A stretch of DNA of 64,000 bases from Dactylonectria macrodidyma (Eukaryota > Ascomycota > Sordariomycetes > Hypocreales > Nectriaceae): positions 4,322,501 through 4,386,500 of the forward strand of contig JAGMUV010000002.1 of assembly GCA_020744425.1 (NCBI GenBank), written 5' to 3'. The position numbers and the translations under genes are program-made. The notes below the pieces were generated by a model. That model was not told the DNA's origin. It made no database searches and worked only from the letters and a program-made list of their open reading frames with translations. Of this stretch, positions 983 to 62,509 are shown piece after piece. Positions within the stretch are counted from its first letter, which is position 1. Each line of letters starts with the position of its first letter.

Positions 983-2097
983 CTGGACTGGATGGCCTGG
1001 AACTGGGATGGACTGCACTGGGTTTGGAGTGGAACTGGGATGGCGCCTTGCGTTTTCGTTGTTCTGGCATGGGCCCGGGCTAGTCAAGAGCATGCTTCCT
1101 TTGTTTGCGCATGACCATGGCCATGGCTTTGTCTCTCAATTTTTTTTTCTGTCGGTCTCACTGTCGCTATCAATCCTTACCATGTCTCGCACCTTCGGGT
1201 CTGTCTGTTCCTGGCGTTTGCCCGCACCTTAGCAATGAATTCTAGGTAGGCAGTCTAGGTAGGTATTCCTGAAAAAGCGGGCGGCGGGTCGTGTCAGTGT
1301 AGGTAGGTGGGTGGTGTTGCTTTTTTCGCCTCGCCCTCCGTTTGGCTCGTTCGGCTCATTTGACTCTTTTGGTTCAGCTGGGTTGGATTCCGTTTGCTCG
1401 ACTTTTGTCTTTGCCGTGCGTGTCCCTGGTGCCCATGTCTGTGCCCGCCTCCGTCATGTCCCCTCTTCTCTCATGATTCCATTCCCCTCTTCTGCTCCAT
1501 CTTCCATATCATCCACCAGTGAGTGTGCATGATACTGTAGCCAGCTGCATCCAGCCAGCTCCCACCCACCCAGCTGCAGCCTCCGCTGAACTCTCTGTTC
1601 CGAGTCACTCGGTGCATCACTGCCGTGTGTCACATCCAAATCTGCTGTGGCCCAACTTCCGTCCCCCTAGTCTACATAGTTACGCTCCCTGAACCTGAAC
1701 CTGAACCCCGTCTAGTGCCCGCCAACCCGCTATTCTCTCTCCCGCTGTCTCTGTTCCGTCGTCCATCCCTCTACTGAGTCTACTCCACACTGTTGGGTTT
1801 CTTTTGGTCTCCCTCCCGAACTACATCCGGCCCCGGCTTGGCCGCTGCGGTCTTCTTCCGACGGGCGGCTGGCATCACCAACGAGGGGTGAGGGGTGAAA
1901 ATTGACTTGCCTGTCTACCTGCCTTGGCTCCCGGCAGAGAGGGAACAAGGAGCCTGGCCAGAGCCCAGAGCAGACACTTGTCTACCTAGACCCGACAGGG
2001 TCCGTCGTTCATCGTCGACCCGGGCAAACAGCTCCAGCCCACACCTACGGTTTCCCAAGTCCACACCTACAGCGGCTTACACACACCTTACCGTTAG

Positions 2098-2131
2098 AAT
2101 CAGACTCAGACTCAGACTCAGACTCAGACCC
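2098..2131. repeat. AGACTC hexanucleotide microsatellite
   Basis: About five tandem copies of the hexamer occur in non-coding DNA upstream of the RING gene. Confidence 0.8.
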
Positions 2132-2569
2132 AGTAGGTACACCTGCCGTCTGCCTGCCCCCTCGTCTGTCTCGCCTCGCACGCCTCGCACCTGCCGCGCC
2201 GCCGCCGCCGCCTAGGAGAGACAAGCACGCCCATGTCCACGCCTACCTACTGCGTACGCCCGCGTCTACTCCCACCCAGTTGCAGTACGCCTGCTTGCCT
2301 GGACGGAGCGAGAGCCCTCCTCTGTGCATAGGTCCCGTCCATTCCACGCCTACCTTAAGATAGGTACCTTACCTTAGACCAGGTTTTCCAGCTCGGCCAG
2401 GCCCAGCCCACGACGAACAAACACTGTGAACTGCTGGATGCCGCCCGAGCCTGTCCCTGCAGCCAAGCAAGCATCATCACCAGGCCCAGTTCCAGCTTAG
2501 TCCTACAAGACGTGGCATTCGCTTTTTTTGATTTTGTGTGCATTTCGCTCGTGCCTCTCCTTTCTCTCC

Positions 2570-2660
2570 TTCTCTCTCATCCCCCCGCTCGTCTCCCGTC
2601 TCTCGTCTCCCGTTTCTCGTCTCTCGTCTCCCGTCTCTCGTCTCTCGTCTGTCGCTTGTC
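2570..2660 (+). repeat. CT-rich imperfect tandem repeat (GTCTCCC/GTCTCTC)
   Basis: Roughly ten imperfect copies of TCTCGTCTCC-like units make a nearly pure pyrimidine tract about 600 bases upstream of the RING start codon. Such tracts are common in the promoters and leaders of filamentous fungi; a promoter role here is inferred. Confidence 0.6.
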
Positions 2661-3237
2661 GGCTTGTGCTGGTTTCTTCCTCCTAATTTCCACTCCCACT
2701 CATGCCCTCTCGTGGCGTCGGCTACAGTTCGCAGCCTGAACGCTCTTCGACGCTTCCTCACCCCCCGGACGCCGCTAGAACCCACCGTCATCGTCATCGG
2801 CGCTATCGCCAGACCCCGATAACGAACGACAACCCCTCCTCGTCCGCCGTCTCCGCCTCTCTCTCCCCTCCAACCAACTCCTCGTCTCGGACTCTGGGGC
2901 CTCTGTTCCCATGACCGCGACCCTCCGTGTTTCCCGATCATTTTTCTGTGATCCAGCGCTCCCCCGATAGTCTTAGTCCAGCACTGCTCTTAGGAAAAGA
3001 TACGAACCTTGCCATCGCTTGTCATCGCCAAGCTACCTCTCTGTTTCTCCACCCGCCTCTCTATCCATCGCCTCCTCCGTTCCCATTTGAACCACTCCCA
3101 CCTACCGCTACATTCGCCGTCCTCACCGTCCTCGTCTTGTCAGAAATAATATATCGAACATAAAGTCTGCGTCAGGTCGGGTCCCGCTCGCCTCGCTTGC
3201 TCAGACACGAACTCGTCAACCGAGTCGGTTGCCCGTG

Positions 3238-6488: not shown

Positions 6489-8218
6489 ATGGCGTTTCCC
6501 TGGGAGAACATCACGGGGGGCGCTTTCGCGAGTACCTTGCTTCGCGCCTGGGCCCAGGACAAGTGGTCGAGATGGTCTCTGATCGGGTCCTTCACTATGA
6601 TGTGGATGGTGGGTCTGATGCTGTGGGTGATCTGGGCCCTGTGGGTGTATCCTATATTCGTATCGCCTCTGCGGCATCTCCCCGAGCCCACGAACAATCA
6701 CTGGCTGTTTGGTCAGGGCAAGCGGATTTTTGCTGAACCTTCGGGCATACCGATGCGAGAGTGGTAAGTTGGTCCCAGTGCGCTGTCCCAGTGTACAACC
6801 CAAGTGTGCCGTAACTCCTTGTATCTCGAAATACTTAAGATAAATGCGGTAGGGTGAACAATATCCCCCACAACGGCATCATACGGTATCGCGGCCTCCT
6901 CAATCAGGAACGCATCCTTGTCGCCTCGCCCAAGGCATTGGCCGAGGTGCTGGTCACCAACAATTACGCATTCGCCAAACCATCACAGGTCCGATGGTCT
7001 CTCGGTCGCATCCTCGGTGTCGGCGTTCTGCTGGCGGAAGGCGAGGAACACAAGATGCAGCGACGCAGCCTGACGCCGGCCTTTGCCTTCCGGCACGTCA
7101 AGAACCTGTATCCTGTGTTTTGGCGAAAGGCCCGCGAGGCAACACAGGCCATGACGGCTGAGTTTGGCACCCAGGGCGAGACGGACGCTGAAGTCATGTC
7201 GTGGGCGTCGCGTGCAACGCTGGACATCATCGGCGTCGCGGGTATGGGCACTGATTTCGGGGCAATTCGCGACGAGAATAGTCTCCTCGCCAAAACATAC
7301 CAGAAGGTCTTCAAACCCTCCAGGCAGGCCCAGATCCTGGCGGTTCTCGGCTTCTTCGTCCCTACTTGGCTCCTCACAGCACTGCCGGTCCGTCGCAACG
7401 AGGACATCAACGACGCCGCCAATGAGATTCGCGCCGTGTGCCGAGATCTCATCAAGCAGAAAAAGGCCAATATTGCCAACAAGGAGCAGCCTGATGTCGA
7501 TATTCTCTCCGTGGCCCTCGAGAGTGGCGGCTTCTCGGATGAGAACCTTGTCGACCAGCTCATGACCTTCCTCGCCGCTGGGCATGAGACGACTGCCTCG
7601 GCTATGACCTGGGCCATCTACCTGCTATGCCGGTATCCCGAGGTCCAGCGTCGATTGCGAGGCGAGGTTCGCGAGAGATTACCGTCCGTTGACTCAGATG
7701 TCGACATTACGAGTCTGGACATTGACCATATGCCTTACCTCAACGCCGTCTGCAACGAAGTTCTCCGCTATTACAGCCCCGTGCCGGTCACGGTCCGCGA
7801 GACGGTTCATGATACGACCATTCTCGGCCACCCGGTCCGCCGAGGCACCCGCATCATGCTTGTCCCGTGGGCGACCAACTTCGACACCTTGCTCTGGGGC
7901 CCGGGTGCCGATCACTTTGACCCGGAGCGGTGGATGCCTTCGGCGGGCGGCGAAGGCGGCGACAGGAAGGTCACGAGCGGGGGCGCCAGCAGCAACTACG
8001 CGTTCCTGACGTTCTTGCATGGCCCGAGAAGCTGCATCGGCCAGAGCTTCGCCAAGGCCGAGTTTGCCTGTCTGTTGGCCGCCTGGGTCGGCCGGTTCGA
8101 CTTTGCCCTCGCGGACCCGGCGCTCGCGGACGAGACGAAGCTTGATATTAGGGGCGGTGTGACGGCAAGGCCCGCCAGGGGGATGCACGTCAAAGTTAAG
8201 GCTGTAAGTGGATATTGA
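6489..8218 (+). CDS. Cytochrome P450 monooxygenase
   Basis: Two exons (6489-6763, 6853-8218) join in phase through a tryptophan codon and give 546 residues, a normal P450 length. An N-terminal membrane anchor lies around residues 30-60 (WSLIGSFTMMWMVGLMLWVI). The I-helix oxygen-activation motif AGHETT is near residue 334. The K-helix ExxR reads EVLR, the PERF-like motif is FDPERW, and the haem loop FLHGPRSCIG places the axial cysteine near residue 486. All catalytic elements are present, so an active ER-bound haem-thiolate monooxygenase using NADPH-P450 reductase is expected. No biosynthetic cluster genes flank it, so the substrate cannot be inferred. I cannot assign the CYP family by eye. 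Confidence 0.93.
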
Positions 8219-21200: not shown

Positions 21201-24200
21201 TGCTACTCCTCTTACCCAAGAAATCTCCGATGGCCTTCCGCTTGCTGGAACTGAGTCAGGCTCAGAAGTAGCTGTCCAGGAAGAAGTCCCAACTCCACTT
21301 CCAGAGGAAGCCCCCGCCAGCGTTATCCTTGCCGAACCCGAGCCAACCCCAGGAGTAGCCCCTGTTGAGCCGGAGGTCGAATCCGACACTCCAAAGAAGG
21401 GAAAGAAGAACAAGAAGAAGAAGAAAAAGAACTCCCTTTCCATCGAGGACGCAGAAAAACAACTCGAGGGTGAGCCTGCATTGCAGGAGCCTTCTGATTC
21501 GACGCTCCGAGAAGTCGGTCTCAATGATACTGAAGGCCCTGTTATGGATGGAGTCTCCTCCGGTGGTCTCGACGTGCTGAATAAGGACAGCGAGGCGCCT
21601 GTTAATGCTCTCCCTGTTACTGATGAACCCACGCTTCTTCAGGACCTGGAGCAGATCCCCGAAATTACCCCAGAAAGTGATGAGCAGACAAAGCCGGCTG
21701 ATGTCCAAACCCTCCTAGAAACCCCGCCCGTCCAGGATCCAGTAGATGCTCCGGCTGCCGATGCCACCGATGCCTCTGCCCTTACTTCCGATCAACCTCC
21801 TGCTGAGCCCCCGGTCCCGTCCCCCGAGGATCCCGAGCCTCTTACCAAAAAGCCCAAAAAAGACAAGAAAAAGAAAAAGAAGAAGGCTGCTCTCGAGGAG
21901 ACTGCGGAGCCTGAGTCTGGAGTCGCTACCCCATCCGAAGAGACCAGTGCCGGAACTACAACCGACGTGGCCGATCCAATCGTCGACATGTCTGTAGACC
22001 CCACCGAGCAGACCTCGCCAGAGCCCGAGACGACGGAAGTCCCTGCTGCGGAGACTACCACCGAGGCCGACACGACGACGACACCGGTCGACGTCTCTAT
22101 TTTGGCGGCATCCACTGAAACTGGAGAGCCGCCTGCATCTAGTCTGGAGCCAGATGCTATTCCTGAAGACGAGCGGGGTGGGTTCAGTCCGAAGACATCC
22201 AATACGGACAAAAAGATCAAGAAGGCTAAAGACAACGATTCTCAAATCCTACAGGACCCAAAGACCAGCCACCTACCGGAACCGGAACCGCAACTGGAAA
22301 AGGAAAGAAACGTCGCGGCCGACGTTGATGATGGTAACCTGGAGCCTTCCGTGAAGGACGAGGAAGCGAATGGGAAGGAAATCGTCATCGACCTCGAGAC
22401 ACCCGTCGAGTCTGAGGCAAAGCCGGAGCTGGGGCGAGGAACAGAGAAGAAGGAAAATGACGATGAATATGCTGGCATGTCCAAAAAGCAGAAGAAAAAA
22501 TTGATGAGGGCCAAGGCTTTGGCTGCCTTGGAGTCCTCGGTTGAGTTGGAGACGCCAAAAGAAACCGAGACAACCTCAAAGGTAGCGACGGAATCTGCGG
22601 CTGAACCCGACATCGAGCCTGAATTGAAGCCGAAGCCTGAGATTGAACCCGCGGCCGAGACAACCGCCGAGCAAGGCATCGATTCTGGATCGAAGCTTGA
22701 GAATGAGGCAACCTCCACGGTTGAGCCTGAATCCGAGACTGTACCTATAGTTGAACCCGAGACTGAAGCTGAATCGAAGCCCGAAACTGAGACTCAACCT
22801 CTTGTCGACCTTGTGGCTCAATCATCTTTGGTTGAGCCGCTCGTTGTCGAACCCACAGCTGATCCTAACATGGAAACTGAACTGAAGCCTGAGTACGAGA
22901 ATGAATTGGTGGACCGGAATGTTTTGGATGCCCCTAAGCCTGAACCCGCGGCCGGGGAGAGACACGATGTGGAGGCCAACCCTACTGAATCTGCAGCTGA
23001 CTCCGAAATTTTACCACCACCTGCGGAAGCACCCGTTGAACCGATTGAAACCACCCTGACATCGGAACCTATCGTTGTGGATGAGGAAAAGCTCGGCGCT
23101 GAACTTGAGGCAGCACCAGCCGACAAGCCTCTAGACAATGTGTCGACTACACTTTCGAAGAAGGAAAAGAAAAAAGAAGAAGGGTAAGGGTAAGGGCCAA
23201 GAGGCTGAGCTTGAATCACAGCGAGACATTGTTACTTCCAAGGAGGCCGACTCTGCAGGACCTGTAATCACCCCTGTCGGGCCTTCCGCAGAACTTCCCG
23301 CTGAGCCTCCATCGGACGTTGTCGAGCCTAGGCAAGAGTCTCTCGTTGAGCCTCCATCAACTGTTGTTGAGACTTCTACAGAACCTCTCATTGAGCCTCC
23401 ATCGGACGTTGTCGAGCCTAGGCAAGAGTCTCTCGCTGAGCCTCCATCAACTGTTGTTGAGACTTCTACAGAACCTCTCATTGAGCCTCCATCGGACGTT
23501 GTCGAGCTTACGCCAGGACCAGAGGATGTCGTTGAGCCTCCATCTGCCGGTGTCGAGTCTACGCCAGAACCCGTTGAATCCGTTGCCCAAATTCTTGAGT
23601 CTCACTTAGAGCCTATCGGACACAAAGATGAGGCCATCGACCCTACTATTGTACCTGAAGCGGAACTGGACACAAATTTCCGAGACGGACCAGATGCTAC
23701 GCCCAAGGGGCTGGGGGACCAGAAATATCCTACTTTGGATGCTACATTGGTACCAACCGCCTTGGTCGCTTCTGAGGCTGTCGCCGAAGCTGAGCCGGAG
23801 CCAGAGAAGACTGGTGATGAGGAAGCAAACATAGGTCAGACGAAGGAAAAGAGAAAGAAGAAGGAGGGTAAGACCGTTGATCTTGAGGCGTCACAGGAAC
23901 CGGAACAGCCAGTGGCAATTGACACAACCCTTGAATCCGCACCGACTGATACCGTTCAAGCGGGAGCTGCCCCCGCCCCGGATGCTATTCCCGAAGCTGT
24001 CGAGTCCTCCTTCGAGACACCGAATGTTCCTGAGCCTGGCCACGATGCCGAGGTTGAAACCGAAATGGAAGCACTCGTTAACCTAGAGCCCGCATCTGGG
24101 GATGTCACATCCAAATTTGCGGCTCGGTTTGCGGAAGAATCTGTCCCTGAACTAAGCCAAGGGCTTCAAACGGATGCAACAATTTTTCTCGAACAGAGTC

Positions 24201-44589: not shown

Positions 44590-45623
44590 CTACGCCTCCA
44601 ACTCCCGTCCAAAGTCAACTAGTCTGATCTTCGTAGCATCGTTGTGGTGAAACAGTGCTACTTTCGACCGCACAAGAAATCGCGCCGAGGCAGATTCCCT
44701 GGGTAGCTGAACATACGACGCCTCCGTGTTGCCCTTGGCCGAGGAGAGGGCATTGAGGAGCTCCTCTGTGAGCCGTTTCATCTCTGCGCTGGCAGCGACA
44801 ACCTCGTCCTGAGGCCCAGCTGCGCCGCTCTGCTCGCCGTCGGTAGCCTGGCCCCAGATTTCGTCGATTCGCCGCTGTCGCTTATCGTTGTTACCGCCGT
44901 CCGGGGCCTTCTTCAGTTTTCCTTGCGCATTGAAGCCAGCCGCGAGGTCATCGCGCTCGATATCCATGAGGCCGCCAACGACGGGGCCACCGAGCTCCTC
45001 CGCTACGAGCATCGGTGCGAGCTTGTCGTTAATGAACCCAAGCAGCACTTTCATGAGATTTGATGTTCCCTGATCGTACCCCTTTTTCTTCTCCTTCAGC
45101 TCCTGGAGACGCTCTCGCGCGCCAGCTTCCGGGGTCATATCAGCGCTGGCGTCCAGGTCATTCCGTAAGGATTGGATTCGCGCTTCAAGCGCCTCCTTGA
45201 GCAAGTTTTGGCCTTTCAGTCCAGCCTGGTCTGCCTCCAACTGGCGCGCGACCTGTTCATGGCTGGCACGTTGAGACTCAAGATAGGCATTGGACTCTTG
45301 AATAGTCTGATGCGTCTTGCGTAGAGCCAGTAGGGCCGGTAGGAGGGACCCTGGAAATGGCAGAAAGGGCTCAGAAGCTGTCACCTCGTCCAGGGCAGCT
45401 TTGATTACCTGGGCCTGCCCTGCAGGAGACTGGGGAAGTTCAACAGAGCTCGAACGTAGCTGGTCCCGAGTTAACATCTGCCGGTATGAGGCTCATACGA
45501 GATGACACTTACCTTTTGCAGCTCATTCTCGTGTTCTCTAACTTTCTTCTGGAGCTCCTTGAGCGTGTGATCAAGGTTGGCGGTGTATAGGTGCGCCTCT
45601 GCGTCCTGCGACCTCTCATTCAT
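44590..45623 (-). CDS. Coiled-coil protein, possibly CENP-K/Sim4-like kinetochore subunit
   Basis: Two exons are proposed on the minus strand: 45623-45513 and 45459-44590, giving 326 residues. A 35-nt intron ending at 45478 would also be in frame but is shorter than fungal introns normally are. The 53-nt choice has a TTAAC branch site 11 bases before its CAG and gives a continuous helix (ELQK then LRSSSVELP). Residues 1-40 and 85-160 are coiled-coil-like (HTLKELQKKVREHENELQ, then LESQRASHEQVARQLEAD), followed by a globular region with FINDKLAPMLVAEELGG and a charged tail. The arrangement resembles fungal CENP-K/Sim4 proteins of the inner kinetochore, but this is recalled resemblance without a diagnostic motif. 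Confidence 0.6.
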
Positions 45624-47161: not shown

Positions 47162-48651
47162 ATGTCCGCTTCGCCTCCCCAACCTACCCAATCGGTCAAG
47201 CGCCCCCTCGAGGAGGCGTCTTCTCCTTCGCGCGCCACCGACCAGCCCGATGCCAAGCGACCCGCTCTTGACAAGATCATGAACCACGATGATGACGTCG
47301 AGGTGCCCGAAGCTCCTACCGCCGAACCCACCGTCGTCAGCCAGGAGCAGAACGGCGATGAGAAGACCAATGGCACCAAGTCTGAGGAAGGTGACGCCCC
47401 GGCGACTGAGGAAGTTTCTGACATCAAAGCTGCCGCTGCCGCGACCGTCGCTGCCTCGGCATCGAACGCCGTCACCTCTGCCACGGCCCACGACGAAACC
47501 TCTTGGATCCATATCCGCGCCGTCATCTCTAGCCCGGAGGCGGCGACAGTTATCGGAAAAGGAGGCGAGAACGTCTCCAACATCAGGAAGCTTTCCAACG
47601 CCAAATGCACCGTCAGCGACTATCAGAAGGGTGCCGTCGAGCGTATTCTAACCGTCAGTGGAATAGTGGACGCTGTGGCCAAGGTAGATGACATCCCATC
47701 GGGTTGAGTATTCTTTATGTGCTAACTCTCTCTGAGGCCTTCGGTTTGATCATTCGAACCCTCAACAACGAGCCGCTGAACGAGCCTTCTACCGCTTCCT
47801 CCAAGACGTATCCCCTGCGCCTCCTGATCCCTCACATTTTGATCGGCTCCATCATTGGCAAGGGAGGAGCCCGAATTCGCGAGATTCAAGAGGCTTCAGG
47901 TGCCCGTCTGAATGCGTCAGACTCTTGCCTTCCCATGTCAAGCGAACGCTCCCTAGTGGTCATGGGTGTCGCCGACGCCGTTCACATTGCCACTTACTAT
48001 GTCGGCAGTACCCTACTGGAACAGCTCAATGATAGATTTGGCGGCCCTGCCGCTTCCGCATACGCAACCCGAAGCGGCGCACCTGCTGGCTCCATTCCTG
48101 GAGGCATGCAGGTTGTCCCTTACTCCCCCCAGCCTGCGTCCGGGCACTACGGTCGAAGCGAAAACTACGGCCGCCACAGCGAGCGTCGCCCCCACCACAT
48201 GCCCCCTGCACCTTACCCGCAGCAGTACCCTCCCCATCCGGCAGCTCAAGGGAACCCGGCGATGCCCATGCAGTATGGCGCGCAAGGAGCAGCATATGGT
48301 GCTACCCCTCACATCCAGCCTCATATGGCACCGCACACCGGTCCTCAGCCGCATGGCGGAGCCCCTCAGGCGCAGCCCATGGCCGGAGCCATCCCTGGAG
48401 GCCCGATTACGCAGCAGATCTACATCCCCAACGACATGGTCGGTGCCATCATTGGCAAGGGTGGGCAGAAGATCAACGAAATACGCCAGATGAGCAATAG
48501 CGTAATCAAGATTAATGAACCGCAGGACAACAGTAACGAGCGGCTGGTTACTATCACTGGGACTGAGGAGGCCAACCGCATGGCGCTATACATGCTGTAC
48601 TCTCGACTTGGTGAGGTGCAAAACAAAACCGGTAGTAACATGATATTCTAA
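47162..48651 (+). CDS. Triple KH-domain RNA-binding protein (Rnc1/Pbp2/PCBP type)
   Basis: Two exons (47162-47683, 47737-48651) join in phase 0 and give 478 residues. Three KH domains each carry an invariant GxxG loop: VIGKGGENV near residue 132, IIGKGGARIREI near 214 and IIGKGGQKINEI near 413. The first 105 residues are disordered and acidic, with KRPLEE and AKRPALDK basic patches. A Pro/His/Gln/Tyr-rich linker separates KH2 and KH3. The two-plus-one domain spacing matches poly(C)-binding proteins and yeast Pbp2/Hek2 or fission-yeast Rnc1, which bind mRNAs and control their stability or localisation. The exact orthologue cannot be fixed by eye. Confidence 0.93.
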
Positions 48652-50449: not shown

Positions 50450-52177
50450 ATGGCAGTCGCATCCGACTCGGCCGCCGAGAATACCGTCCCGTCTCCCACC
50501 ACCAACACGGCCGTCGCCGAAGATGAAGACTCTCTCCCCACCGAGCTCAACCTCCTCACACTCAACTGCTGGGGTCTTTTGCACATCTCAGCACTCCGCA
50601 CCCCTCGTCTGGACGAGATTGGTCGTCAACTTGCCCTGCTAGCCCCCACCCCTCAGATTGTTGCACTCCAGGAGTGCTGGACCCAAGACGACTACCGTGC
50701 CATCCGTCGCCATACTCGCCAAGTCCTGCCCTATGGCAAGTTCTACCACAGTGGTGCCTTTGGCGGCGGACTCGCCATCCTAAGCCGCTGGCCCATCGAG
50801 GAGAGCACCATGGTCAAATACACTCTCAACGGACGTCCCACGGCCTTTTGGCGAGGAGATTGGTATGTGGGCAAGGGTGTCGCCTGCGCCAAGATTCGCT
50901 TTGGACCTCGGAGGAAGGATGTCATCGAGGTCTTCAACACACATGTAAGTTGTCAATGTTTGTGATCGTCTTCGAGGACCCCAAATCCAGCTTCGTCCGC
51001 CTGCTCTCGGCTGTCCTGTGTAGTACAGATCTGTTCTAACTTCACTCAGACTCATGCGCCTTACGAGAGCGAGCCCAACGACTCATATATCTGCCACCGA
51101 ACTGCTCAGGCATGGGAAATGTCCAAGCTGCTCCGTGGCGCTGCTGAGCGTGGTCACCTCGTCGTAGCCATGGGCGACTTCAACATGCTTCCTCTCTCCC
51201 TTGCACACCGCCTCATCACCGCCCACGCTCCTGTCCGCGACGTTTGGCGAGTCCTCCATCCGAACAGTGCGCTGGGTCCCGCCCATCACCCTGCCGAGAA
51301 GGCTCGCCATAGGCCCATACCCACTGCTGACTACAATCTGCTCGAGAATGGTGCCACCAGCGACTCCGTCCACAATACATGGCGATGGACCAAGAATCAG
51401 CAGAAACTCCTGAAAGCCGGCAAGCCTGGCGGGGTGCCTGGCGATGCCATTGACCCCCGCGGCAAGCGCCTAGATTATATATTTGCCTCCACTGGAGTCG
51501 ACCCGGACGCGCCCCCCACAACTCCTGGCTGGGTCATCAAGACTGCAGTTGTCGCCCTGACAGAACGCCATCCCGACCTACATGTCTCCCTCTCCGACCA
51601 CTTTGCAGTCCAAACAACCCTCACTCGACACATTCCTTCAGTGTTGCCCGCGCCGGGGTATGCTCGATCTGAAACTCCTTCTGCCGCCCTCAAGACGGGT
51701 GCCTACCTCGCTAACAGCAGCCCCGCGAGCAGCATCCGCTCCGTCACCAGAGCGCACCCCTCTGATCCGGATCTCCAGCTATTACATAACCCCAACGATG
51801 AGCCTCTCCCGCTGGCCATCTATGATGAGATCCTCGCCATGATCCACAAGTATTCCCTCCGCGAAGTCCGCCAGCGCTACTGGCGAGGCGTGCACTTCTT
51901 TGGTGCCCTGTTCGTTTGGCTTGCCTGCCTGGTCGGCGTCTGGTTCAGCCCCGCCAACTATGTTGCGTTCATCTTGATGCTAGTCAGCAGTCTAGGATTG
52001 GTCGCTGGTGTTGTGGATGGACTCCTCTCGTTGCTCTTCTTTTCATGGGAAATACGCGGCCTCAAGGAGTTTGATTGGGAGATTCGTAACGCCAAGGCCG
52101 CAGCATCGGGCGAATTAGTTGCTCTTGGTGAAACGGAGGCCGATGGCATTTCTGCTAGCCGTTCGAAAACTCACTGA
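50450..52177 (+). CDS. ISC1: Inositol phosphosphingolipid phospholipase C (neutral sphingomyelinase family)
   Basis: Two exons (50450-50944, 51050-52177) join in phase 0 and give 540 residues. The enzyme cleaves inositol phosphosphingolipids to ceramides, in yeast at the ER and mitochondria. The endonuclease/exonuclease/phosphatase fold is clear: LNLLTLNCWG, metal-binding Glu in ALQECW (near 74), GGGLAILSRWPI, the P-loop-like YVGKGVACAKI, HAPYE, the Asp/Asn pair in MGDFNMLP (near 206), LDYIF and catalytic Asp-His in LSDHF (near 346). Two C-terminal membrane helices (about 447-468 and 470-495) with a short charged tail match Isc1 and nSMase architecture. It converges on the PUK1-like kinase, 200 bases away. 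Confidence 0.94.
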
Positions 52178-52377: not shown

Positions 52378-55116
52378 TCACTGTAGCCGCTCTCCGCCAG
52401 TCGTTCGCGTTGCAGTATATCCACCTGGTCTCATCCTCCGCCATGTATAGCCCATGAAGGCGGTCCTCTTCCTGATATCCATCACGTCGTCCTTGATATC
52501 CTGGTCTCGCAACAAAATATCTCTTGGCCGTTTGCGGTCCTTCTGGCCATACAGCCTGACAAAGTGCTTGAGCATTTCCTTCTCTTCCAACCGCAGCTCT
52601 CGTGATTCTTGGATCTGGCGGTCCATCTTACGTAACTTTGTTGAGTCGAATGGCGACTCAATGAGTTTAATCGCATGACTCTGCACCCGCGGCTCAAAGT
52701 CGCGTAACACTTGCCGCACGTCGTCAGGGGTCAAAACAACTCCCACTGGCGATGACTCTGACCAATCGTCGATAAGATCTGATTCATCGAAGTAATGGGT
52801 ATCGTCGACGCTATGGATGTGTGGGATGAATGGAGGGGTTATTGACTGCAGGCGATCCCAGGGCACATTCTTGAACCAACGGTGCGACTTGATGTCCTCC
52901 GCATCATCCGGGAAAACGTGACGTCCAAAGAAATCTCTGAAGCGGGAACTGTCAGCATGGCCACGATCCTTCATATAGTATCTCTTCGAGCAGAGTCGGT
53001 GTTGATCATCTTGCATCAGGCGATATATCAAGTCCTTGCATTTGTCGCTGACAAAGGGTTGTGTAGGAAACCCGAAGTGGCTTTTGTAATGCTATCAGTG
53101 CGTGAGCATTTATCGAGCAGTTCGTCTTTGGTCATGAAGTAGGCGGGACTCACCTGAATATTTAGCTTGGTTTGCTTTCGTCCATCATCTGACAGAAAAG
53201 GCGTGTGTCCGTATAGGCACTCGAACAGAATGATGCCGATACTCTACTAATCGCATCTGCCGTCGTATTTTTGCCCCAAGACTACTTCGGGGGCCATGTA
53301 CTGGCTAGTGCCGACAACTGAATTTGCTGCCGTGCGATTTCCATGCTGGTTTCTCCAGCTTATCAGGCTCTCAAGATCTTCGCCGGCGTCGATTGGAAAC
53401 TTCCCATGCCTCTCGAGGCCCTCGACCAGAGATTTGTACCATTCAAACTGCGTGAGAATGCTGCGATTATTCTTTTGGTCAACTTCGTCTCCATTGACCT
53501 TGATCCCGAGTTTGCGGACCAACGAGTATCGATGAGAGTTGAAGTATGAGGCGTCATGGGACCAGTGTCCATCAAATGCGAGTCCAAAATCGGAGATCTT
53601 GAGGTGCCCAGATGCGGAGATGAGAAAGTTGTCCGGTTTGATATCTCGGTGAATGAACTTGAGACGATGAGCTTCCTCGACAGCCAAGATCATCTCTGCG
53701 ATGTAAAAACGCGCGACGGACTCATTAAGAATATTTTCTCGGATCAGCAGCCCCAAGAAGTCGCCGCCTGGCATGTATTCCATCACCAAGTAGAGGTTAT
53801 CGATGTCCTGAAAGCTACATATCAAAGGAACAACCCTGAGTAGTATCGTTAGCACCCTATTCGTCGAGCTTTTTGCCGGGCTAATAGGTGCACTCACCAA
53901 TTCGATCCCTCGGAGGAGACAAGGAAGTCTCTTTCAGCCCTCAAATGGCCCTCCTGGCAGCTGCGCAACATTTCTGACTTTCGGATCACTTTCATAGCAT
54001 ATACTTGCTTCGTGAGAGCATGCCCCGAGGCGTGCCTTTCTTGAACCAACCGTACAACCCCAAAGCTTCCCTTTCCCAAGACCTGGAGGGGCTCGTAATT
54101 GTCAGGGTACCGGTGAGCCGGCGTTTCCACCCCGAGGGTAGGACTTTGCGACTTCATCACCCGTATTTCTCTCAAGTGCCATGTCTCTTGGTTGTTGAAG
54201 GACTCTCGGATAGCCTGTTTCTGCTCCAGGGTAAGATGCGGGCTGTAGAAGAGCTGAGACTCCAAGTACCGGCGTCGTACTCCTCGCATGTCAGGACCGT
54301 GGAACACCCTGCTGTAGGTTGTCTCCAGGTAAATCTTAGCGGCGGCGGCTCTCTCCACAGTCGCAACTGTGGGTTGGATCTGATATATGCCTAGCTCTTG
54401 AATGGTGTTGAGTGTTCCTCCTTCTGGGCTTGAGCGTGTCCAGGGATTTCGTCTGCTGTGTCGCCTGTTTGTCGTAGGTTTGGCGGGGCACGAGAATCGC
54501 GAGTCTACTGACGTCTTTCTTGTTGACTGATAGGTCCCTAAGGACGTCTGCCCCATGTCCTTGGAAGACTGCAAGGTGTCCAAGTCGCTAGATGATGGTG
54601 TTTGAACCCTGGCGAGAGCTTGGAGCGAACCTCGGCTCTTCAAGGGATGTGGGTGAAGAACAACCGTGGTATTTGAAGCGAGGCCCGTTTGTTTAAGACG
54701 CAGGTTTTGTACGAAATCCTTTGGAATCATGCTTTTGACGTGAGATGCTTGGGGAAGAGTGTGTTCATCTTCGTTCATCGCGACGCTCTTGCCATGCCTA
54801 GGCTTGAAAATGATATCTCTAGGAGTCCATTTAGCGACCACGGACTCTCGAGAACCTATCGATTGTCAATTAGGGGCTCGCTGCTGTGTGAGAAATCCCT
54901 ACTGCCATTGCTGCTTCTCCCAATCGCCTTGATCGCTCCACGGATGTCGGACCAGACCTTAGAACTAGTGTGACGAAGCCTCAGCCCCTGACGGTCGCTA
55001 ACGGGGCTCGGAGAGTGAGGAAATGGCAAAGAAAAGTCAACAGTAGAATCCTTTGGCTCAAACGATAACGTGTGGATCAGTGGGTGGCTGCCTTTACTGT
55101 GAAGTATTGGAGCCAT
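52378..55116 (-). CDS. PUK1: NDR-class AGC kinase, PUK1-like, with two in-frame TAG codons (probable A-to-I editing target)
   Basis: Four minus-strand exons (55116-54903, 54855-53898, 53835-53154, 53091-52378) form one frame of 856 codons, counting the final stop and two internal TAGs at codons 587-588. Upstream lie the NDR/Mob-binding helix region (ERAAAAKIYLETTYSRVF, RRRYLESQL), the glycine loop GKGSFGVV, catalytic Lys in YAMKVIRK, HRDIKPDN, DFGLAFDG, a long NDR activation-segment insert and YMAPEVV. After GRCD come TAG TAG, then SIGIILFECLYG; AGC kinases have Trp-Trp there. Downstream sequence is intact, including YFDESD and the hydrophobic motif FMGYTW. Fusarium graminearum PUK1 is known for tandem UAGs in its kinase domain that are edited to UGG in perithecia, and this gene matches that design. 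Unedited mRNA would yield a 586-residue truncated kinase. Confidence 0.85.
53232..53257 (-). promoter_or_regulatory. Predicted hairpin presenting UAGUAG in its loop (RNA-editing site)
   Basis: In the mRNA sense, GAUGC (53257-53253) pairs with GCAUC (53236-53232). GAU (53252-53250) then pairs with AUC (53240-53238), with one bulged G at 53237. The 9-nt loop is UAGUAGAGU. Both candidate adenosines (53248 and 53245) are unpaired, each preceded by U and followed by G, the context preferred by fungal A-to-I editing. Confidence 0.7.
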
Positions 55117-56017
55117 GGTAGTGTTCCAGGGTAACCACCCTAGAAATCGACTGCTAGTAGCGATAATGAAGTAAATTAGGAGCAATCAAGTCTCCGGTAT
55201 AGAAAAGAATGAAACCAATGGAGTGGGGACCGCGGGATTGCGACTTCGGGTAGCGCAGACAATCAATGATGGTGGAAATGTGGGAAAGCTGAGAGTTGTT
55301 GAGCGAGGCCACGAGTGAGGATAGTTAGGAGGCACGCAAGACGCGACTAGCTTTCCTACAGTAGGCCTCGTGAATAGGAAAGAGCAAACAGGAATAGTCA
55401 GGTACGACGATGTAAGCAGTAACACGCCAATCTGCAACTCTGCATCCGACGGGTACCTTACCTGGGTAGGTACCTAGGGGATACCTGAGGTATTTGTGTA
55501 TAGTAGGTTAGGTACCTTTAAGTAGCTTGGGCCTAGGTAGGTAGGTACGTAACCATCTTCGTGCTGCGACGTCGTCTATAGCGAAACAATCTCACAACCA
55601 GTTCATCTGATTAACATAACAAGTCTTTATTGGCAAATCCCTATTACCTACAACCAACAATAATCAACTATCATTGCATTTGTCGAGGGACATCCTACGG
55701 CTTCAAAGAGAAAATCCTTTTCGTAAGACGCCGTTCATGCAACGCAGGTCCTCGCCCCATCATCCCTGCTCTATCCGACCGCGACACGATGTTCTTTTTG
55801 GCGAACATTGGGTCTTTGCGGAAGGCACAGGTCTAAGGCTCCTCATCATCGCATATAACGTACCAAGTGAGTAGATGGAAAGAACCCCGGAACCAGAAAA
55901 TTTTCGTCACCCAGATAGCCCACTCATCCCCATCGGCGGCGGGCCATGGAAGGGTATTAGTACACGCCACCCACTCTAAGTGGCCGCTGGATCATGAATG
56001 CTTGGCATCCCCTTTGT
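55117..56017. other. Kinase promoter and FKBP downstream region
   Basis: About 900 bases with no supported gene. A cluster of GGTAGGTACC-like motifs lies at 55452-55555. The kinase start at 55116 was chosen over an in-frame ATG at 55185 because the upstream extension is hydrophobic and unlike NDR N-termini. Confidence 0.55.
55452..55555. repeat. Cluster of TAGGTAGGTACCT-like motifs
   Basis: At least five overlapping or adjacent copies of GGTACCT / CCTAGGTAGGTAGGTACG occur within 100 bases upstream of the kinase gene. The same motif occurs singly elsewhere in the intergenic DNA of the window. Confidence 0.7.
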
Positions 56018-60379: not shown

Positions 60380-62509
60380 TTAGGCCATCTCATCCACTTT
60401 CAGCGCATTCGGCGCTTGTCGCCGAGTTGCCTTCTTGCTGACTGTATAGACTAGGTCTTGGTTCCAAAGCTGACAGATCAACGCCTGAGCGCTAGGAATC
60501 GTGCCATACAATGGTGCTACTAGAGGGACCATGATATAGTCTTTCCAGTTTTTGCGCAGGCTCCGTCGAGAGAAATCCATGCCGTCAGCAAGGCCGGCCT
60601 TGACCATGCACTTTTCGCGGGCAGCGACACCAACGCAATGGAAGCTTTCGTACATGACTAGATAGATGGAGATTTGAAGGAATCCCAATATCCTGATCAC
60701 GTTGCACCAGTTAAAGATCCAAGCCAGATTCTGCGGATCTTCTTTACCCTCCGCGACTTTGACGTATATCGTAGATGCAATGACCAGAATCGCCATGTGA
60801 ACTGGGAGAAAATGTGCCTCGAAAATTCTGTGCACCATGTAAAAGACGTGCTCCCAATGGGGCTCTTTGATCGTATCCTTGGTAATGTCTGAGAAGATAC
60901 CGTTTTCCCTAGGCTGATCCGCGTTGTCGCCCAACCGATTCTCAAGGATGAACAGGTCCGCACCGTTTGCGTGGGTACAGTGAAGAGGTTGATACGCCCG
61001 GGATGTATGCTTTCGCTCTAACCACATCTCGACCAGTTTCCGCATGGCAAAGCCTGTGTCGAGGGCACCCCACATGTGACGAAGGGCCTGCTTATACCGA
61101 GCATTTATATCAGCGAAAGCGCCGCGCCAACCGGAACCGCCGCCGCCAGTCACGTTGCTCTGGCTGACTGGGCAGTTGATAACTCTGCTGGTCAGATTTC
61201 CGTTGAGGGCGAAGAAACACTTGATGTACATGTGCAGATCCTCGCCAATAGCCTCACCGTCGCAATCCCAACCGCCAACACGGTCGATAAGGTCCAGAGG
61301 TAGGGAGTAGACGGAAGTAGGAGGAGCAATGCTGGAACCGGGATATAGACCAGACATGCCTGCGGCAGCCCAGACGACATCGGCAACCCGAACCAAAGCA
61401 TGAACGTTGTGCGCATTGCGATCAAATATGATAGGAGCCGAGTAGAGAGTAGTGGTTGCGGTTTCGGGATAAGACAGATGCATGTTAGTGAGAAGGGTGA
61501 AGTAATCAGCGGCAAGATGACTGTCAGCTGTAGTGTCGAGAATTGGCCTGGTAAGCAGCAAATACAGTGAGAAGAAATCCGATGAGATGCACATACCATC
61601 AATCCCGGTGATGATCACGTCTTTCCTGACTGCCATCGAGTACTTGGCGCTGAGCTTGCGAGCAGCCCAACCGATGTTGCTGCCCTTTCCGGCAGCCTCG
61701 CCGGGAATATCGGACGGGTGCATTGTGAAATCAATTGATCGAAACTTCTTGGCAAATTCTTGGATAAGACGTAGTGCCTTCGTCTCAGCCTCGATTTCTC
61801 GTTGTTCCATACCAAGATATACCTAGTGATGTCAGAAGGAGTTTAAATTAACAATGCTTATCTCCAAGGACAAACAAGAGACGGCATGGGGATTGCGTAG
61901 AGTATTGATGCAAAAGAGGCAGAGGTAACAACCTACATCGTACGAATCCTGGGCGCGTTGGTGGCAAGATAGAACCTCAAGCGTCTCCTTTAGAGTATCA
62001 TACTCCTCCTTGTAGTTTGGAATGATGATGGCATGAATAACGGCGGCTGTGGGAACGCCGTCTGTGTACGACTCGGTGTCGAGGTCACCAGCTTCGCTAG
62101 CGGTAGAAGAGGAACCGTCGTTGTAACTCGATATAAGAGTCTCTGAGCTAGACACAGAGGTGTACGAGCCACGGCGAGAGGTGAGCCTCTTGAGGTCAAG
62201 AAGAGAGTTACTGCGGGCGGAGCGTTCGAGTGTCTTGGTGAGGTTCCAGACGGTCCAGCAGGCTCGCATCGGGAACATGCAAACGAGTACGTGAATGAAG
62301 AGGCAGTAGTAGGCGAAGACGAAGGTCCAGACACCAGCACCGGTGGTGGAGGTTGACGAGTAGTATGAGCCTTGGTTGTTGGGCTGTTCATACTTGTATC
62401 GATGTTGCTGGAGTGATGATTCTTGCGAGATAACCCAGTAGCAGAGCGTGATGAGTACAATCAGGCTCAGGCCACCAGCGCGCCGCGACACCCAGTTGAA
62501 GAGAGACAT
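60380..62509 (-). CDS. Multi-pass membrane family 2-type glycosyltransferase
   Basis: Three minus-strand exons (62509-61937, 61822-61597, 61527-60380) give 648 residues. Two membrane segments lie near residues 13-27 and 59-80. A Ser-rich loop follows, then the GT2-type domain: HAIIIPNYKEEYDTL, KGSNIGWAAR, the nucleotide-sugar-binding Asp motif DADSH (formed across the second splice), GGWDCDGEAIGEDLHMY with the catalytic Glu-Asp, and a QALRHMWG motif resembling the (Q/R)xxRW acceptor site. Three or more C-terminal hydrophobic segments follow. Processive GT2 enzymes make cell-surface polysaccharides; the product here is unknown. The second intron is 69 nt with no in-frame stop, so its retention would insert 23 residues. 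Confidence 0.88.

What the first reader, a model, noticed from the sequence alone, without database searches (positions are those of the whole stretch)
53232..53257. Tandem UAG UAG in a kinase catalytic domain, displayed in a hairpin loop: probable A-to-I recoding site
Seen: the coding strand reads GAT TAG TAG AGT ATC GGC where NDR/AGC kinases read Asp-Trp-Trp-Ser-Ile-Gly, and the frame is open and kinase-like on both sides. The two target adenosines sit in a 9-nt loop closed by an 8-bp stem with one bulge, each in a U-A-G context. Known: Fusarium graminearum PUK1 has tandem UAG codons in its kinase domain that are edited to UGG UGG during sexual development by an ADAR-independent process. Inference: this is the PUK1 orthologue, and the full-length kinase is made only when the mRNA is edited, probably in fruiting bodies. 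The hairpin offers a concrete cis-element hypothesis.
Basis: partly seen in the sequence, partly recalled or inferred. Interest (0 to 1): 0.95.

Follow-up and report, generated by a model that had tools for sequence, protein, structure and literature searches.

The report
Fungal kinase gene needing RNA editing
A fungal kinase gene carries two adjacent stop codons where the enzyme needs two tryptophans, very probably because the fungus corrects them in its RNA during sexual development, as is already known for the same kind of gene in Fusarium graminearum.

Summary
On the minus strand, TAG TAG (53249-53244) interrupts an otherwise open four-exon kinase model at codons 587-588, exactly where yeast CBK1 reads Trp-Trp. 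The frame after the stops is not decayed, no near copy was found, RIP indices are ordinary, and no credible intron of 40-250 nt removes the stops. It matches Fusarium graminearum PUK1, whose UAG UAG in kinase subdomain IX is edited to UGG UGG in perithecia (PMC4817773 passages). The genome holds Tad2 and an Ame1 with the published Tad3-contact residues; Tad3 was not identified. Of five published stop-correction genes looked at, in-frame TAGs occur in this kinase and SPO22, less surely in RID and AMA1, not in DCP1. So: a new member of a known kind, very probably edited. The hairpin exists as drawn but is ordinary against synonymous controls. No RNA data and no orthologue alignment could be had. 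In passing: ten OLD-type deaminase matches; three of five examined flanks hold a zinc-finger gene, each cut by an in-frame TAG.

The parts
53244..53249 (-). Tandem in-frame TAG TAG, codons 587-588 (CDS nt 1759-1764 of my model); target adenosines 53248 and 53245
53232..53257 (-). Predicted stem-loop: 8 bp with one bulge, 9-nt loop UAGUAGAGU; not better than synonymous alternatives
54903..55116 (-). Exon 1 of the PUK1-like kinase, putative start ATG at 55116
   Evidence: start codon and intron 1 are inferred from frame and splice signals
54856..54902 (-). Intron 1 (47 nt, GTAGGG...CTAAT...TAG)
   Evidence: inferred
53898..54855 (-). Exon 2: N-terminal region and start of the kinase domain (GKGSFG, YAMK)
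53836..53897 (-). Intron 2 (62 nt, GTGAGT...CAG)
   Evidence: inferred
53154..53835 (-). Exon 3: HRDIKPDN, DFG, MAPE and subdomain IX with TAG TAG
53092..53153 (-). Intron 3 (62 nt, GTGAGT...TAG)
   Evidence: inferred
52378..53091 (-). Exon 4: rest of the kinase domain and C-terminal extension; end of the full-length frame

Best explanation
This is the PUK1/STK-21 orthologue (an NDR-related AGC kinase) of a filamentous ascomycete, probably a Sordariomycete. The unedited transcript encodes a kinase cut off inside subdomain IX, after its conserved Asp and before the rest of the C-lobe and the C-terminal extension, hence inactive. During sexual development the Tad2-Tad3 deaminase with its activator Ame1 deaminates the A of both UAG codons; UIG is read as UGG, Trp-Trp is restored and the full-length kinase is made for ascospore formation or release. 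Shown here: gene model, stops, conservation of the frame, Tad2, and Ame1 with its contact residues. Inferred: orthology, editing, stage and function.
For: WW at the site in CBK1 and TGGTGG in 3 of 8 other own-genome kinase loci scanned, the other five showing no DWWSxG match. No decay after the stops: CBK1 identity 108/243 before (kinase part; 131/318 over all of the aligned part before) and 42/110 after; codon score 0.025 bits before and 0.047 after. No near copy by protein search, ordinary RIP indices, 12 TGG and 40 CAA/CAG codons intact. Among the other 88 of 91 listed kinase matches, 5 have stops inside and none has TAG alone (83 of 167 candidates were scored). Of 25 frame-keeping GT-AG pairs of 40-250 nt, 0 have good donor, YAG acceptor and branch motif together. 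Published PUK1 has UAG UAG in the ninth kinase subdomain, edited in perithecia (PMC4817773 passages). Ame1 orthologue L004 has MV, S, E/R, D and H at exactly the published spacing; the two paralogues lack MV and E/R (PMC11087585). Tad2 present. In-frame TAG in SPO22, another published target, and less surely in RID and AMA1.
Against: No RNA was seen, so editing is not shown. No orthologue could be aligned: the protein database was off. The hairpin is not above chance. The codon score is weak: an antisense frame scores as high as the sense frame in the 200 codons before the stops (0.093 and 0.084) and higher in the 30 codons of exon 3 after them (0.051 and 0.004). The only DCP1-family match, a published target family, shows no such stop inside its frame. 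Tad3 was not identified. No MAT alpha-box gene was found, though that search cannot show absence. Relatives with one stop or none (PMC4817773 passages) show that the site drifts.
Confidence: 0.88

Rival explanations
1. A young pseudogene: the stops are plain nonsense mutations and the kinase has been lost.
For: Two nonsense codons in the catalytic domain; no RNA evidence of editing is held.
Against: Both stops are TAG, side by side, on the two Trp codons, and nothing else in the model is broken; the downstream frame is about as well kept as the upstream one; Ame1 and Tad2 are present and SPO22 has the same kind of lesion.
Confidence: 0.06
2. Repeat-induced point mutation turned TGG TGG into TAG TAG.
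For: TGG to TAG is the change that RIP makes in CpA on the other strand (recalled knowledge).
Against: No near copy by protein search and the 18-base core pattern is unique; TpA/ApT 0.55 and (CpA+TpG)/(ApC+GpT) 1.26, with 12 TGG and 40 CAA/CAG left.
Confidence: 0.01
3. The stops lie in a small intron, as automatic annotation of Fusarium PUK1 once assumed.
For: Frame-keeping GT-AG pairs exist (25 of 40-250 nt).
Against: None has a good donor, YAG acceptor and branch motif together (0 of 25); removal would delete conserved kinase residues around the site; the same intron call was wrong for PUK1 (PMC4817773 passages).
Confidence: 0.02
4. The truncated, unedited kinase is a product in its own right, and editing is a minor or conditional switch, possibly by an OLD-type deaminase.
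For: Ten OTT_1508-type deaminase matches in this genome; OLD enzymes also correct UAG in N. crassa zao genes (PMC12754623 passages).
Against: In F. graminearum about 90% of PUK1 transcripts are edited in perithecia, FgTad2 edits PUK1 mRNA in vitro and the fip5 mutant lacks PUK1 editing (PMC4817773, PMC11156358 passages); OLD proteins make only a limited number of edits.
Confidence: 0.05

Closest known systems
PUK1 (FGRRES_01058), Fusarium graminearum
   Same: Kinase with tandem UAG UAG in kinase subdomain IX (A1831, A1834 there; A1760, A1763 in my model here)
   Different: Somewhat fewer codons before the stops in my gene model; editing, stage and function not tested here
stk-21 (NCU03242), Neurospora crassa, and FVEG_01191, F. 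verticillioides
   Same: PUK1 orthologues with a stop at one of the same two codons, edited in perithecia (PMC4817773 passages)
   Different: They keep only the first (UAG UGG) or only the second (UGG UAG) stop; here both are stops
Tad2-Tad3-Ame1 mRNA editing of Sordariomycetes
   Same: Ame1 orthologue with MV, E/R and D, and Tad2, found in this genome
   Different: Tad3 not identified; activity not tested
OLD-ZAO editing module of Neurospora crassa
   Same: UAG stop correction; OTT_1508 deaminases and neighbouring zinc-finger genes with in-frame TAG occur in this genome
   Different: Acts on zao genes in antiviral response; I saw no report of PUK1 as a target

Membership tests
PUK1 / STK-21 kinase | NDR/AGC-type kinase with catalytic motifs | tested here: met
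   Pfam Pkinase before and (below cut-off, E 7.4e-5) after the stops; best PDB match CBK1, E 5.2e-73
PUK1 / STK-21 kinase | Orthology by tree or synteny with PUK1 | not testable with these tools
PUK1 / STK-21 kinase | In-frame UAG at one or both Trp codons of subdomain IX (seen in some orthologues, not all) | tested here: met
Fungal premature-stop-correction editing | UAG with U at -1 in an open, conserved frame, no intron | tested here: met
Fungal premature-stop-correction editing | A-to-G change in sexual-stage RNA, absent from hyphae and DNA | not testable with these tools
   no RNA reads held
Fungal premature-stop-correction editing | Target A in a hairpin loop (a preference, not a requirement) | tested here: inconclusive
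   MFE puts both As in a 9-nt loop, but synonymous controls do so in 486 of 2000
Tad2-Tad3-Ame1 editor | Ame1 with MV500-501, E546/R548 and D589 equivalents | tested here: met
   L004 against PMC11087585
Tad2-Tad3-Ame1 editor | Tad2 and Tad3 present | tested here: inconclusive
   Tad2 found; Tad3 not identified among the PF00383 matches looked at
RIP-made pseudogene | Repeat copies and many C-to-T changes | tested here: not met

The most novel reading that the evidence does not exclude
In this fungus UAG correction is a widespread gene switch run by two editing systems at once: Tad2-Tad3-Ame1 for the sexual genes (this kinase, SPO22, perhaps RID and AMA1) and an enlarged set of OLD-type deaminases for zinc-finger genes with in-frame TAG, with the kinase possibly open to both, so that it could be switched on outside fruiting bodies.
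Probability: 0.06. Interest if true: 0.65.

Novelty: new member of a known kind. Interest (0 to 1): 0.36.

Why it matters
It extends the founding example of ADAR-independent mRNA editing to another, unnamed 77-Mb fungal genome that keeps both stops, a state that the passages I read describe for F. graminearum only. It lets one ask why the site drifts between zero, one and two stops, and it suggests that a genome can be read for editing from stop codons on conserved tryptophans plus the Ame1 residues.

Tried and rejected
Hairpin as special cis-element: not above chance here. RIP and intron: rejected. SPO22 first TAG (L002 reverse strand 1498-1500): rejected as an intron acceptor with GTAAGG donor and CTGAC branch motif (by eye). 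SPO22 second TAG (3007-3009): 36 frame-keeping GT-AG pairs, 0 good. RID TAG: kept as likely, but 2 of 56 pairs pass the test, one a 144-nt intron that ends on this TAG. AMA1 TAG: ambiguous, since a strong GTACGT donor lies 32 nt before it; a 39-nt frame-keeping intron with an AAG acceptor would remove it (by eye; shorter than one search scanned; 0 of 42 longer pairs passed). A frame change in SPO22 upstream of the TAG was not explained by a normal intron. 5.8S rRNA search to name the species gave nothing. A scan of the window for further stop-correction genes listed none, but its thresholds also miss the kinase itself, so it says little. The PNAS 2017 paper on N. crassa (PMC5604002) is not held. 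SPO22 gave no useful PDB relative, so conservation of a Trp at its TAG was not tested.

Full report
What is there. The minus strand of 52378-55116 holds a kinase gene. With three introns (54902-54856, 53897-53836, 53153-53092, the last two with GTGAGT donors) the exons join to 2568 nt with no frame break except TAG TAG at codons 587-588, CDS nt 1759-1764. The start ATG and the introns are inferred from frame and splice signals; no RNA was seen. The part before the stops matches Pfam Pkinase (131.7 bits); the part after matches the end of the same profile (22.7 bits, E 7.4e-5, below the curated cut-off of 31.7). By sequence the best solved relative is yeast CBK1 (E 5.2e-73), then STK38 and MRCK/ROCK kinases, and CBK1 has Trp-Trp exactly at the two stops.

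Is it chance or decay. I scanned nine kinase loci of the own genome for the motif DWWSxG with W or stop at the two sites: one is this gene; of the other eight, three (L019, L020, L049) have it, all spelled TGG TGG, and five show no match to the pattern. Of 91 kinase matches listed in the genome search (83 of 167 candidates scored), 3 are this gene; of the other 88, 5 have stops inside (introns or otherwise) and none has TAG alone. Identity to CBK1 is 108 of 243 (44%) in the kinase part before the stops and 42 of 110 (38%) after. Codon-usage scores are alike on both sides (0.025 and 0.047 bits per codon) and negative in the other two sense frames, but the signal is weak, and one antisense frame scores as high in the last 200 codons before the stops (0.093 against 0.084) and higher in the 30 codons just after (0.051 against 0.004). 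No near copy of the gene was found by protein search: the next matches are 47% over 151 and 50% over 131 residues. Its RIP indices are ordinary (TpA/ApT 0.55, second index 1.26; window 0.64 and 1.22), and 12 TGG, 21 CAG and 19 CAA codons are intact. Of 25 frame-keeping GT-AG pairs of 40-250 nt that would remove both stops, none joins a good donor, a YAG acceptor and a branch motif.

The hairpin. The drawn stem-loop is the MFE in 64-nt and 104-nt context; the bare 31 nt folds slightly differently. Both As are mostly unpaired in a 244-nt context (0.76 and 0.99). Its stability is ordinary: z -2.05, -1.05 and -0.36 for 31, 64 and 104 nt, with 9, 33 and 64 of 200 shuffles folding at least as well. 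In 2000 synonymous randomisations around the site both As lie in a hairpin loop 486 times, 333 times with equal or better energy; with the As held open, 489, 638 and 755 of 2000 local folds are at least as stable. In the whole window 376 of 1116 TAGs lie in predicted hairpin loops. So the hairpin fits the published loop preference but is no evidence by itself.

The machinery. The genome (G000, 77.3 Mb, 77 contigs, unnamed) has four DUF726 matches at three places. One gene (L004) has Met-Val 31 and 30 residues before the GxSxG serine, Glu and Arg at +15 and +17, Asp at +58 and His at +98. These are the spacings of F. graminearum Ame1 S531, MV500-501, E546, R548, D589, H629; MV replaced KN in Sordariomycetes and is needed for the Tad3 contact, as are E546/R548 and D589 (PMC11087585, section 17 and passages). 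The paralogues L003 and L005 have Ala-His and Ser-Leu at the ungapped offset, His-Asn and Leu-Asp if one lines up the DNP...AG block by eye, and lack the Glu/Arg pair. Tad2 is present; Tad3 was not identified.

Other published targets. PMC4817773 passages name, beside PUK1, RID, a Dcp1-like gene, a Rho GTPase, a Rho-GAP, AMA1 and SPO22 as genes with PUK1-like editing. I looked at five of these seven. PUK1: this gene. SPO22 (L002): one in-frame TAG, reading AYNIGVTKCHV-stop-GLWHLVRIF, in the loop of a predicted stem-loop; 0 of 36 intron pairs pass. RID-like methyltransferase (L032): one in-frame TAG reading LTCR-stop-KLEV in a frame of 653 codons; a 144-nt intron that ends on it remains possible; the name RID rests on the methylase match and on recall. 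AMA1 candidate (L045): one in-frame TAG, ambiguous because of a possible 39-nt intron. DCP1 family: one match, no stop inside its 259-codon frame; whether it is the published Dcp1-like gene is not known. Rho GTPase and Rho-GAP: not tested. Where the papers place the stops in RID, SPO22 and AMA1 I could not see, so same-site identity is not claimed.

What is known. PUK1 was the founding case: UAG UAG edited to UGG UGG in perithecia, in about 90% of transcripts; automatic annotation wrongly put an intron in the ninth kinase subdomain; N. crassa keeps only the first stop, F. verticillioides only the second, M. oryzae and C. paspali neither (PMC4817773 passages). Non-editable PUK1 and stk-21 alleles do not rescue (PMC7306014 passages). 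Loop and U(-1) preferences are published (PMC9600606, PMC11156358 passages). Individual sites are often not conserved between species (PMC5381528 passages). So this is a new member of a known kind.

A second editing system in passing. Ten OTT_1508-deaminase matches occur. I fetched flanks of five of the ten, two of them on one side only. Three of the five (L062, L063, L064) hold a zinc-finger gene beside the deaminase, read away from it, and in all three a frame before the fingers is cut by one TAG with like-framed sequence on both sides. In L065 none was seen, and in L061 only one weak finger-pattern match that I took for chance. Gene models were not built, so introns at these TAGs are not excluded. 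This resembles the OLD-ZAO module of N. crassa (PMC12754623 passages). Over all eight TAGs folded (two here, SPO22, RID, AMA1, three zinc-finger genes), the A lies in a predicted hairpin loop in five (not in RID, AMA1, L062) by my reading.

Verdict. Editing of this site is very likely (0.88) but not shown. It is a good, ordinary member of a remarkable known class.

Noticed in passing
L062:5973-5975 +, L063:1156-1158 -, L064:1807-1809 - (genome contigs C45, C34, C67): Zinc-finger genes beside OTT_1508-type (OLD-like) deaminase genes, each with one in-frame TAG before the fingers; 3 of 5 examined flanks, out of 10 deaminase matches. Resembles OLD-ZAO modules, possibly enlarged here; introns not excluded.
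   Followed up: partly
L002:727-729 - (C56): SPO22 orthologue with one in-frame TAG in a predicted stem-loop; also an unexplained frame change about 130-180 nt upstream.
   Followed up: partly
L032:1246-1248 + (C1); L045:1273-1275 + (C76): RID-like DNA methyltransferase and AMA1 candidate with in-frame TAGs; introns not excluded.
   Followed up: partly
L009 / L027 (C1:5901958): The Tad2 frame also begins right after a TAG, counted as a stop inside the PF14437 match; probably an intron end, not examined.
   Followed up: no
window 9241-30967 +: Repeat-rich open stretches of 4648 and 2611 codons in two frames that overlap at 23135-23184; an intron or frame change may join them.
   Followed up: no
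window 55001-56000 and 2001-3000: The only two of 63 one-kb steps that meet both RIP-index thresholds; 55001-56000 holds the start of exon 1 and its upstream region.
   Followed up: no
genome G000: No MAT alpha-box match; the strain may be of the other mating type or the search insensitive.
   Followed up: no
window 6839-8215 +, 44593-45492 -, 47692-48648 +, 50966-52174 +, 60383-61822 -: Neighbouring open frames with Pfam matches: cytochrome P450, CENP-K-like, KH domains, endonuclease/exonuclease/phosphatase, family-2 glycosyltransferase; four other frames scanned had none.
   Followed up: no
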